Source: Rhodoglobus sp. (GTDB taxonomy: Bacteria; Actinomycetota; Actinomycetes; Actinomycetales; Microbacteriaceae). From it: a DNA stretch of 44,348 bases. The stretch spans positions 1 through 44,348 of the forward strand of contig JAODLY010000020.1 of NCBI GenBank assembly GCA_025464445.1, given 5' to 3'. Below the pieces are notes generated by a model. That model was not told the origin of the DNA and did not search any database. It saw only the letters and a list, made by a program, of their open reading frames with translations. The first letter of the stretch is position 1, and each line of letters opens with the position of its first letter. Positions 10,857-29,720 of the stretch are shown here, one piece after another. The translations under genes and the position numbers were made by a program.

Positions 10857-11975
10857 ATGAAGGTCGCCGTGCCGAGAGAGATCAAGAACAACGAGTTTCG
10901 CGTGGCGATCACCCCGGCGGGGGTGCATGACCTGGTCGCCCACGGCCACGATGTGCTCATCGAGACGGGCGCGGGGGTCGGGTCATCCATCCCCGACGAC
11001 GCATATGTCGCCGCGGGGGCGACGATAGCCCCGGATGCCGCGACGACGTGGAACTCCGCGGGGCTCCTGCTGAAAGTGAAGGAGCCGGTCGCCGCGGAGT
11101 ACGGCTACTTCAGGGATGACCTGCTGCTGTTCACCTACCTGCATCTCGCGGCCGAGGTCGAGCTCACGAAAGCCCTCGTCGCGAGCGGGGTGACCGCCAT
11201 CGCGTATGAGACGGTGCAGCTGCCGTCACGGGCGCTGCCGCTGCTGGCCCCGATGAGCGAGGTCGCCGGGCGCCTCGCGCCCATCGTCGGCGCCAATGCC
11301 ATGCTCAAACCCAGCGGTGGGCCCGGGCTGCTCGTGCCTGGCGTCCCCGGTACCCACCCGGCGAAGATCGTCGTGCTCGGCGGCGGCGTTGCGGGCACGA
11401 ATGCGATATCCGTAGCGGTCGGGCTCGGGGCGGATGTGACTGTGCTCGACACGAATATCCAGCGGCTTCGCGAACTCGACGCGCTCTACGCGGGGCGCGT
11501 GCGCACGATCGCCTCGAACGGTTTCGAGATCGAGCGTGCGCTGCTCGGCGCCAACATGGTGATCGGCTCGGTGCTCGTGCCCGGGGCCAAGGCGCCCAAG
11601 CTCGTGAGCAACGACCTGGTGTCCCGCATGAAACCGGGCAGCGTGCTCGTCGACATCGCCGTCGACCAGGGCGGCTGCTTCGAAGACACGAGGCCGACGA
11701 CGCACGCAGACCCGACATTCACCGTGCATGGCTCGCTCTTCTACTGTGTGGCGAACATGCCGGGCGCGGTGCCGAACACCTCGACGTACGCGCTCACCAA
11801 CGCGACAATGCCGTACGTGCGGGCAATAGCGAACCTCGGCTGGAAAGAGGCGCTGCGTGCGGACGCCGCACTCGCGCTCGGGCTCAACACCCATGCCGGG
11901 CGCGTCGTCTACGAGCCGGTGGCGGGCGCGCACGGCCTTGACCACCTGCCGCTCGCCGAGGCGCTGGCTGATTAG
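10857..11975 (+). CDS. ald: Alanine dehydrogenase
   Basis: Cytoplasmic NAD-dependent enzyme that interconverts L-alanine with pyruvate and ammonia. The ATG at 10857 gives MKVAVPREIKNNEFRVAITP and 372 residues, matching the family length almost exactly; an in-frame GTG 39 bp upstream would add 13 non-conserved residues. Expected active-site residues are present: Arg15, Lys75 in LKVKEP and His96 in YLHLA. The Rossmann motif VVLGGGVAGTNA lies near 170-181, and VDIAVDQGGC follows with the conserved aspartate. TACTCT ends 7 nt before the ATG and no Shine-Dalgarno is seen, so leaderless translation is likely. The stop overlaps the convergent FtsK-type gene (TTAG shared). Confidence 0.95.
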   Translation: MKVAVPREIKNNEFRVAITPAGVHDLVAHGHDVLIETGAGVGSSIPDDAYVAAGATIAPDAATTWNSAGLLLKVKEPVAAEYGYFRDDLLLFTYLHLAAEVELTKALVASGVTAIAYETVQLPSRALPLLAPMSEVAGRLAPIVGANAMLKPSGGPGLLVPGVPGTHPAKIVVLGGGVAGTNAISVAVGLGADVTVLDTNIQRLRELDALYAGRVRTIASNGFEIERALLGANMVIGSVLVPGAKAPKLVSNDLVSRMKPGSVLVDIAVDQGGCFEDTRPTTHADPTFTVHGSLFYCVANMPGAVPNTSTYALTNATMPYVRAIANLGWKEALRADAALALGLNTHAGRVVYEPVAGAHGLDHLPLAEALAD

Positions 11976-29184: not shown

Positions 29185-29720
29185 AGGAACGGCTCCGCAT
29201 CGTCGGGCACGGCGAGGCGCTGCATGGGCAGGATCTGGAGCACATTGTCGTCCCCGATGTCGACGAGGGTTCCCGGCGAGATCACGACAGACTCACCCTG
29301 CCTGAGCTTGCGCGGCACGCTGCCCGGCACCATGACAATCGAGCCGTTCGTGCTCTTCAGGTCGGTGACGATGACCGATGATCCCAGCTGTCGCAGTTCG
29401 ATATGCGTCGCCGAGACCTCCTTGAGGGGAGATGGCACCCGCAGCAGCCGGGGTGCAGGACCACGCACGATGCGCGGGGATGCCGGGCGCCTGCCGATGA
29501 AACACGGCCGGTCGAGGGTGATCGCCTCGGTGCGCGCGCCGACCCTGAACTGGTAATACTGTGCGGTCGCCTGCGCCGGTTGCGCCGCCGAGGGGCGCTC
29601 CGGGCGCTCAAGGTCGGTCTCGACGATGAGCGTGTTCTCGATATCGGCGGTCGCCGGCTCCGGCTCGTCTACCGTCGCGCGCGGGGCAGGGACGACAGTC
29701 GCATCGAAGTCATCAGCCAC
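29181..29720 (-). CDS. Small FHA-domain protein with N-terminal threonine motifs
   Basis: Cytoplasmic phosphothreonine-binding protein, 179 residues from the GTG at 29718-29720. The N-terminal 50 residues are acidic and disordered-looking, with DATVV (6-10, Thr8) and ENTLIVET (28-35, Thr30). These resemble the threonine motifs in GarA/OdhI-type proteins that kinases phosphorylate and the FHA domain then binds. The FHA domain spans about 55-165, with FIGRRP (74-79), EVSATHIEL (101-109) and DLKSTNGS (120-127), so Arg, Ser, His and Asn contacts are intact. The open frame runs up to 30002, but the added residues are Arg-rich and non-conserved, and a promoter-like TACACT sits 6 nt before the GTG. 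First gene of the cluster; overlaps the phosphatase gene by 4 bp. Confidence 0.88.
   Translation of the reverse strand: MADDFDATVVPAPRATVDEPEPATADIENTLIVETDLERPERPSAAQPAQATAQYYQFRVGARTEAITLDRPCFIGRRPASPRIVRGPAPRLLRVPSPLKEVSATHIELRQLGSSVIVTDLKSTNGSIVMVPGSVPRKLRQGESVVISPGTLVDIGDDNVLQILPMQRLAVPDDAEPFL

What the first reader, a model, noticed from the sequence alone, without database searches (positions are those of the whole stretch)
11972..29720. Extended kinase-fn3-MoxR-DUF58-transglutaminase cluster with an FtsK/EccC-type motor
Nine minus-strand genes, mostly with 4-bp overlaps or tiny gaps, combine a Ser/Thr kinase/PP2C pair, two FHA readers, a 1954-residue exported Ig/Fn3 protein, a MoxR-DUF58-transglutaminase membrane module and a two-ATPase FtsK/SpoIIIE protein. 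The kinase-fn3-AAA-DUF58-transglutaminase core resembles the bifidobacterial PFNA cluster (recalled, not looked up). The proposal here is that the whole is one machine: kinase and phosphatase set the state of FHA proteins, which control an FtsK-type motor and a MoxR module acting on the giant surface protein. The link between motor and surface protein is inference from co-location.
Basis: partly seen in the sequence, partly recalled or inferred. Interest (0 to 1): 0.78.

Follow-up and report, generated by a model that had tools for sequence, protein, structure and literature searches.

The report
Kinase-controlled secretion-like surface-protein gene cluster
Nine neighbouring genes of an actinobacterium combine a giant surface protein, chaperone-like partners and a protein-secretion-type motor, and the same combination in many relatives suggests that two gene sets studied separately so far may belong to one cell-envelope machine.

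Summary
In detail: nine co-directional genes, FHA, PP2C, Ser/Thr kinase, 1954-aa propeller/Ig/Fn3 protein, MoxR, DUF58, transglutaminase-fold membrane protein, zinc-ribbon/FHA, FtsK-type ATPase. The host is a Microbacteriaceae near Salinibacterium/Rhodoglobus. The ATPase is a cut-down type VII secretion EssC: membrane hairpin and first ATPase kept, FHA and third ATPase lost. The genome also has a paralogous cluster: same core, a full FHA-EssC, then two WXG100-like genes, weak matches. The motor lies within 10 kb of the core transglutaminase in 48 of 72 family genomes that have it. An EssC and a core-type transglutaminase are neighbours in 35 of 149 order genomes, 12 families; 2 of 4 fetched end in WXG100. 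The 'transglutaminase' lacks its catalytic cysteine in 149 of 149 rows. Best reading: a relative of the Bifidobacterium PFNA cluster joined to a T7SSd-like motor, without its own WXG100 gene. Against one obligate machine: 23 of 72 motors are unlinked, 4 genomes have motor but no core hit, many cores lack a motor. The mechanism is inferred.

The parts
29181..29720 (-). FHA protein, 179 aa; phosphothreonine-binding pattern G-R ... S-x-x-H ... N-G present
   Evidence: meaning of the pattern recalled
28357..29184 (-). PP2C-type Ser/Thr phosphatase, 275 aa
   Evidence: Asp of NED and ADG motifs in 49 of 50 rows, the other row a gap
26790..28256 (-). Ser/Thr kinase with one membrane helix and a short outer domain (helix read from sequence); possible true start GTG 28220
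   Evidence: HRD Asp in 102 and DFG Asp in 100 of 106 rows
20922..26786 (-). Giant exported protein, 1954 aa: N-terminal hydrophobic segment, beta-propeller (residues about 46-370), Big_9/cadherin-like repeats, fn3
19937..20908 (-). MoxR-type AAA+ ATPase, 323 aa
   Evidence: Walker A and B residues in 143 of 143 rows
18489..19940 (-). DUF58 membrane protein, 483 aa
16090..18492 (-). Transglutaminase-fold membrane protein (TgpA-like), 800 aa, without catalytic Cys and His
14843..16093 (-). Protein with two zinc ribbons and a C-terminal FHA domain, 416 aa
11972..14764 (-). EssC1: shortened EssC-like motor, 930 aa; membrane hairpin, one conserved and one decayed ATPase, no FHA, no third ATPase (start TTG 14764 or GTG 14752)

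Best explanation
The cluster encodes an envelope machine related to type VII secretion. Shown: the FtsK-type protein is an EssC relative with a membrane hairpin and one conserved ATPase; the giant protein has a hydrophobic N-terminus, a predicted propeller and an Ig/Fn3 stalk; the transglutaminase-fold protein lacks the catalytic cysteine; EssC motors and this core are repeatedly neighbours. Inferred: the giant protein leaves through Sec, stays anchored by its N-terminus and spans the wall, as proposed for the giant Ig protein TsdI of T7SSd; the EssC1 ATPase works on it or on a substrate beneath it; MoxR, with the DUF58 protein and the pseudo-transglutaminase as membrane adaptor, assembles or remodels the complex; kinase and PP2C set phosphothreonine marks read by the two FHA proteins, which decide whether motor and surface complex are joined. 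The window copy has no WXG100 gene beside it, so it may have lost secretion or borrow WXG100 proteins from elsewhere in the genome.
For: EssC/EccC profiles beat FtsK (TIGR03928 1.1e-71 against FtsK 8.7e-18; all below their curated cut-offs); 39% identity to the genome's full EssC over residues 367-669 and 27% over residues 12-236, the hairpin region. Paralogous cluster PP2C-FHA-kinase-231-aa protein-giant-MoxR-DUF58-TGase-EssC-WXG100-like-WXG100-like/CHAP in the same genome. 48 of 72 motors linked; 20 of 20 fetched linked loci hold kinase, giant, MoxR, DUF58, TGase and motor. 35 of 149 order genomes have TGase and EssC within 15 kb, 33 of them on the same strand, about 1.6 expected by crude uniform placement. 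WXG100 genes end the run in 2 of 4 fetched order-level loci. 14 of 15 placed core-linked long EssC rows fall in one 17-row clade, support 100/99. Giant and TGase: both hit in 102 and neither in 18 of 120 genomes.
Against: 23 of 72 motors are unlinked and 4 genomes have the motor but no TGase or giant hit. Of 20 fetched type-2 cores only 3 have an EssC in the fetched stretch, one of them on the other strand; of 20 fetched cores chosen for lacking the motor, 7 have a long EssC (one on the other strand) and 1 a short one, 12 none. At class level a core-type TGase lies near the EssC in 5 of 59 fetched loci. Frigoribacterium, and by position Curtobacterium, keep the core but only an ATPase-free piece of the motor. 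No WXG100 gene was found in 20 fetched linked loci. The WXG100-like genes behind the host's full EssC match below the cut-off, and at E <= 1 the same profile rings in 13 of 14 control genomes. Nothing tested transcription, phosphorylation or secretion.
Confidence: 0.5

Rival explanations
1. Two functional modules that merely share a site and regulators: PP2C-FHA-EssC1, and kinase-giant-MoxR-DUF58-pseudo-TGase. They are kept together because both need the same kinase and phosphatase, not because they form one complex.
For: In 20 fetched unlinked loci PP2C accompanies the motor in 18, giant and TGase in none. Gene families that flank the window cluster recur there: the alanine-dehydrogenase-like one in 10 and the aldehyde-dehydrogenase one in 7 of the 20. 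Cores without motor are common.
Against: The core is joined by two different EssC types, with WXG100 genes in several loci; ATPase-free EssC1 membrane pieces stay with the core where the motor was lost.
Confidence: 0.35
2. An ordinary PFNA-like adhesion and sensing cluster; the FtsK-type gene next to it has no part in it.
For: TGase and giant are present in 34 of 48 family genomes without the motor at the threshold used; the published PFNA work explains the core without a motor (PMC8430577, passages).
Against: 48 of 72 linkage in the family and 35 of 149 neighbourhoods in the order, 33 on one strand.
Confidence: 0.12
3. A DNA translocase or anti-phage system built on an FtsK/HerA pump.
For: FtsK_SpoIIIE and weak HerA profile matches.
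Against: EssC/EccC profiles are far better; the N-terminal hairpin aligns with EssC; the best FtsK match of the genome lies elsewhere, on C3.
Confidence: 0.03

Closest known systems
PFNA operon of Bifidobacterium (PMC8430577; passages seen)
   Same: Core order kinase, fn3 protein, MoxR ATPase, DUF58, transglutaminase; accessory PP2C and FHA genes in some species; membrane kinase
   Different: Here a Microbacteriaceae genome, a 1954-aa propeller/Ig protein with one fn3 match, PP2C and one FHA gene in front of the kinase, and an EssC-type motor; a term search of that paper found FtsK, EssC, WXG100 and type VII 0 times
Type VII secretion subtype T7SSd (PMC11217815; passages and Discussion seen)
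   Same: EssC-type ATPase, Ser/Thr kinase, giant Ig-like envelope protein; FHA-bearing EssC and WXG100-like genes in the paralogous C27 cluster
   Different: Window motor has no FHA domain and fewer ATPases, no WXG100 gene beside it, no hydrophobic C-terminal helix seen on the giant; MoxR, DUF58 and transglutaminase occur 0 times in that paper's text
MoxR-DUF58-TgpA modules (Pseudomonas PA2875-PA2873, PMC3507681; passages seen; the MoxR and DUF58 identity of PA2875/PA2874 is recalled)
   Same: Same trio of families; the transglutaminase core aligns with solved TgpA 6g49
   Different: TgpA is reported to keep the catalytic triad and to have activity; the proteins here lack the Cys in 149 of 149 rows
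MoxR-vWA-beta-propeller ternary systems (PF20030; PMC7159879, only search listing seen)
   Same: MoxR partnered with a propeller protein; weak PF20030 match 5.9e-7
   Different: Here the propeller is the base of an exported giant stalk and the partner is a DUF58 protein; membership not tested further

Membership tests
PFNA cluster | pkb2, fn3, aaa-atp, duf58, tgm in this order, one direction | tested here: met
   published order
PFNA cluster | fn3 protein with type III fibronectin domains | tested here: met
   fn3 8.5e-11, one stretch passing; the published protein has two domains
PFNA cluster | Single transcript from a start upstream of the kinase | not testable with these tools
   a consensus promoter scan found no sigma-70-like site (0 found, mean 1.1 in shuffles)
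PFNA cluster | Sequence orthology of each gene to Bifidobacterium genes | not tested
   no Bifidobacterium sequence could be identified by name among the loci fetched
T7SSd | WXG100 protein (TsdA) encoded in the cluster | tested here: not met
   no match in the window; the genome's three matches lie on C15 and C27; 0 of 20 linked relatives with my own profile
T7SSd | EssC ATPase with N-terminal FHA domains | tested here: not met
   EssC1 starts at the membrane hairpin; the C27 paralogue has an FHA domain
T7SSd | Membrane Ser/Thr kinase (TsdD) | tested here: met
   (helix read from sequence); homology to TsdD itself not tested
T7SSd | Giant Ig-like protein with N-terminal signal and C-terminal membrane helix (TsdI) | tested here: inconclusive
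   Ig repeats and hydrophobic N-terminus present; no hydrophobic helix in the last 40 residues as read
T7SSd | TsdH small membrane protein | not tested
   no TsdH sequence at hand
Active transglutaminase (TgpA) | Catalytic Cys-His-Asp triad | tested here: not met
   Cys position A/Q/E/G/D/S, never C, in 149 of 149 rows; His in 15 of 149; Asp in 119 of 149

The most novel reading that the evidence does not exclude
The MoxR-DUF58-pseudo-transglutaminase trio with the propeller/Ig giant is an unrecognised assembly and wall-spanning half of a phospho-controlled type VII secretion family spread through many actinobacterial families, and the Bifidobacterium PFNA operon is a fragment of it; the window shows a derivative whose EssC has been trimmed and freed from WXG100 secretion.
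Probability: 0.4. Interest if true: 0.8.

Novelty: new variant of a known kind. Interest (0 to 1): 0.62.

Why it matters
Two literatures, the PFNA 'host-sensing' operon and the new type VII secretion subtypes, may describe parts of one system. If so, it gives MoxR-DUF58 modules a client, gives T7SS variants a candidate assembly chaperone and wall-spanning part, and raises the question whether PFNA tgm is an active transglutaminase. It can be tested in harmless Microbacteriaceae.

Tried and rejected
DNA pump or defence: rejected on profile scores. Universal linkage of long EssC with the core: rejected; a core-type TGase lies near it in 5 of 59 class-level loci, L021-L079 (in one search four more have MoxR and DUF58 only). 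My expectation that most second cores carry an EssC was wrong: 3 of 20. Test of a ubiquitin-like domain at the EssC N-terminus: the model has pLDDT 60.7; its strand-strand-helix-strand order fits, but the 50 fold matches shown are FHA or FHA-like domains; left open. EccC (classical T7SS) rows were dropped from the tree by my motif filter, as were five truncated core-linked EssC rows (11 rows dropped in all, listed), so the EccC comparison was not made and those five are not placed. Naming Bifidobacterium loci: the one genome-contig scan kept 80 loci, whose titles name Microbacteriaceae genera or unplaced actinobacterial bins. A consensus promoter scan found no site.

Literature: searches. No listed paper was seen to join MoxR/DUF58/transglutaminase with type VII secretion: 'type VII secretion' + 'transglutaminase' + 'MoxR' gave 0 papers; 'MoxR' + 'DUF58' + 'type VII secretion' gave 1, on M. 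chelonae prophages (listing only). A review compares the mycobacterial moxR operon with PFNA, and the passages seen do not bring in type VII secretion (PMC12067865). The library is open-access only.

Full report
WHAT IS THERE. Nine minus-strand genes lie between an alanine-dehydrogenase-like gene on the plus strand (10857-11975; name from my reading of its sequence) and an aldehyde dehydrogenase (29804-31237): FHA, PP2C, Ser/Thr kinase, giant Ig/Fn3 protein, MoxR, DUF58, transglutaminase-fold protein, zinc-ribbon/FHA, FtsK-type ATPase. Four of eight junctions overlap by 4 bp. The transglutaminase gene is best started at 18492. The window lies on contig C47 of a 2.84-Mb genome in 57 pieces; the nearest named relatives of its transglutaminase are Salinibacterium and Rhodoglobus bins, 69 and 71% identical, so the family called f1 here is taken to be Microbacteriaceae.

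THE MOTOR IS A REDUCED EssC. NCBIfam EssC (1.1e-71) and EccC profiles match far better than FtsK (8.7e-18), though below their curated cut-offs. Aligned with full EssC proteins it keeps the two-helix membrane hairpin and the first ATPase, has a shortened second ATPase, and lacks the N-terminal FHA domain and the third ATPase. In 84 aligned rows the first Walker A lysine and the Asp-Glu of Walker B are invariant; the second Walker lysine is kept in 42.

A SECOND, FULLER CLUSTER IN THE SAME GENOME. On C27: PP2C, FHA, kinase, a 231-aa protein without Pfam match, a 1763-aa paralogue of the giant protein (32% identical over 1635 columns), MoxR, DUF58, transglutaminase, a 1478-aa EssC with an FHA domain, an 86-aa WXG100-like protein and a WXG100-like protein fused to a CHAP domain, then further FHA genes. 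The two small proteins match WXG100 below Pfam's cut-off (3.6e-4 and 1.2e-4), and at E <= 1 the profile also rings in 13 of 14 control genomes, over the cut-off in 1; their place directly behind EssC and their W-x-G are what speaks for them. A third, clear WXG100 gene lies on C15 (2.1e-18).

CONSERVATION IN THE FAMILY. Of 120 family genomes, 72 have the short motor (E <= 1e-65), 102 the transglutaminase and 102 the giant protein; the same 18 lack both. The motor threshold misses some: G215, not among the 72, has one (L149). Motor and transglutaminase lie within 10 kb in 48 of the 72; 23 are apart (one of them, G213, by about 14 kb); in one (G187) contig ends prevent a decision. I fetched 20 of the 48 linked loci: kinase, giant, MoxR, DUF58, transglutaminase and motor in 20 of 20, an FHA gene in 18, PP2C in 17 (some stretches end near the kinase), WXG100 in 0. 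I fetched 20 of the 23 unlinked motors: PP2C in 18, giant and transglutaminase in 0; the alanine-dehydrogenase-like family of the window site is present in 10 and the aldehyde dehydrogenase in 7 of the 20, so at least part of these are the same chromosomal place without the five-gene core. Four genomes (G161, G235, G237, G250) have the motor but no transglutaminase or giant hit. Motor and core are associated (68, 4, 34, 14; Fisher p 5.6e-4), but kinship and genome size were not corrected for. Of 80 named loci, 57 hold at least 21 kb: 35 with the short motor (e.g. Agromyces, Cryobacterium, Schumannella), 3 with a long EssC (Agreia sp. Leaf283, two Microbacterium), 19 with neither (e.g. Curtobacterium, some Leifsonia); of the 23 shorter ones 12 have the motor and 11 do not. 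Of 20 fetched second-type cores 3 have an EssC; of 20 fetched cores chosen for lacking the motor 7 have a long EssC, 1 a short one, 12 none.

CONSERVATION IN THE ORDER. In 149 genomes a profile of the transglutaminase and one of EssC give neighbours within 15 kb in 35 genomes of 12 families: 27 pairs transglutaminase then EssC on one strand (26 genomes, 9 families), 7 the other way round, 2 on opposite strands. The pairs of the second kind in family f44 rest on weak, perhaps different, transglutaminases. Crude uniform placement over the 89 genomes with both listed gives about 1.6. The output lists were cut short, and five short-motor positions of family genomes were added. Four of these loci were read. 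In family f40 the run is giant (part)-MoxR-DUF58-transglutaminase-FHA protein-PP2C-FHA protein-kinase-231-aa protein-EssC-WXG100-like. Family f43 has the same run; its first gene is cut and looks like fn3 repeats to me but did not match the giant profile, and its first FHA protein has a zinc-ribbon-like stretch below the cut-off. The small protein matches WXG100 over the cut-off in f43 and below it in f40. The other two (f41, f36) have the core and EssC without a WXG100 gene in the stretch. At class level a core-type transglutaminase lies near the long EssC in 5 of 59 loci; one of them, L063, continues with a clear WXG100 gene (2.4e-16) and a T7SS_signal-like protein below its cut-off. A tree of 81 first-ATPase domains puts 14 of 15 placed core-linked long EssC rows, from seven families, in one clade of 17 (100/99) and the 12 short motors used in another (100/100); 11 rows were dropped, five of them truncated core-linked ones, and short motors were thinned to every eighth locus.

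THE GIANT PROTEIN. AlphaFold2 on 400 N-terminal residues with 19 rows gives pLDDT mostly above 90 for residues 46-370, nearly all strands; the best solved match by E-value (3.3e-11) is an archaeal surface-layer protein with a YVTN propeller followed by PKD domains, but with TM 0.43 and rmsd 13.2; many other propellers follow with TM about 0.3-0.55. The fold class is supported, the blade number is open.

A PSEUDO-TRANSGLUTAMINASE. Against solved TgpA (6g49) the profile aligns the TgpA stretch GFCAHY with G-D-x-E-Q-Y and the histidine of DAHAWVE with a small residue. In 149 aligned rows the Cys position is never Cys, the G, E and Q around it are invariant, and the His is kept in 15; these 15 are a subset of the long-EssC-linked kind and close kin (e.g. 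Agreia and Microbacterium loci, L026, L063), while others linked to a long EssC (L019, L064, L160-L163) have lost it. TgpA itself is reported to have the triad and activity (PMC3507681, passages). The invariant G-D-x-E-Q suggests a conserved, non-catalytic use. Bifidobacterium Tgm was not examined.

MOTOR REMNANTS. A profile of the motor's membrane part finds, among 1941 unlabelled genes, six hits, all in the place of the motor; they are four different genomes: two Frigoribacterium, one Curtobacterium and G226 (2.2e-19 to 1.9e-5). Thirteen Frigoribacterium and Curtobacterium loci were looked at and 12 have an open frame there, but only three of these 12 match the profile; the others are judged by place and mutual alignment. 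dN/dS is 0.36-0.65 in the 15 closest pairs and below 1 in 56 of 66, with synonymous sites near saturation. So ATPase-free membrane pieces of EssC1 appear to persist beside the core.

INTERPRETATION. What it works like: a type VII secretion-related envelope machine in which kinase and phosphatase address FHA proteins. What it is a member of: the core meets the order that defines PFNA; the window cluster fails two T7SSd features (WXG100 gene, FHA on EssC), so it is not filed as T7SSd. T7SSd as published has five components, and MoxR, DUF58 and transglutaminase occur 0 times in that text; the PFNA papers searched do not mention FtsK, and one was also searched for type VII secretion without a hit. 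The join between the two is, as far as the searches reach, not in print.

Noticed in passing
L019:2186-2490 (host contig C27) and alignment A3: The first about 95 residues of the core-linked long EssC have strand-strand-helix-strand order like a ubiquitin-like domain; T7SSd was reported to lack a ubiquitin-like component, so it may be fused to EssC. The model (of L233) has low confidence.
   Followed up: partly
L186:14293-15093, L173:14433-15302, L214:14336-15175: ATPase-free remnants of the EssC1 membrane part stand where the motor should be in Frigoribacterium and one Curtobacterium; other Curtobacterium have an open frame at the same place.
   Followed up: partly
L019:7074-7853 (host contig C27): WXG100-like protein fused to a CHAP domain (1.2e-11), a possible secreted wall hydrolase of the paralogous system.
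   Followed up: no
host contig C15:352-603: Clear WXG100 gene (2.1e-18) at a contig edge, outside both clusters.
   Followed up: no
L058:15514-18490 and similar loci L044, L059-L062, L065, L066: Long EssC genes of another clade lie beside genes with T2SSE and T2SSF matches (tested in L058 only), recalling the reported neighbourhood of T7SSg/h with Tad pili in Bacillota.
   Followed up: partly
L233, L237, L242, L026, L063, L153-L155, L157, L158: These transglutaminases, linked to a long EssC, keep the catalytic histidine but not the cysteine; the window's has lost both.
   Followed up: partly
L104 (genome G177, contig C12): A second-type core is followed on the same strand by FHA, FHA, kinase and then a first-type giant, MoxR and DUF58: two cores in tandem, with the short motor on another contig.
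   Followed up: no
L067-L069 and order genomes of family f44: A different arrangement: EssC first, then MoxR and DUF58 (L067-L069) or a transglutaminase (f44) some kilobases downstream.
   Followed up: no
window 28257-28356: Largest gap of the cluster, before the kinase, with TACAAT at the annotated ATG; possible inner promoter, which would put the kinase start at GTG 28220.
   Followed up: no
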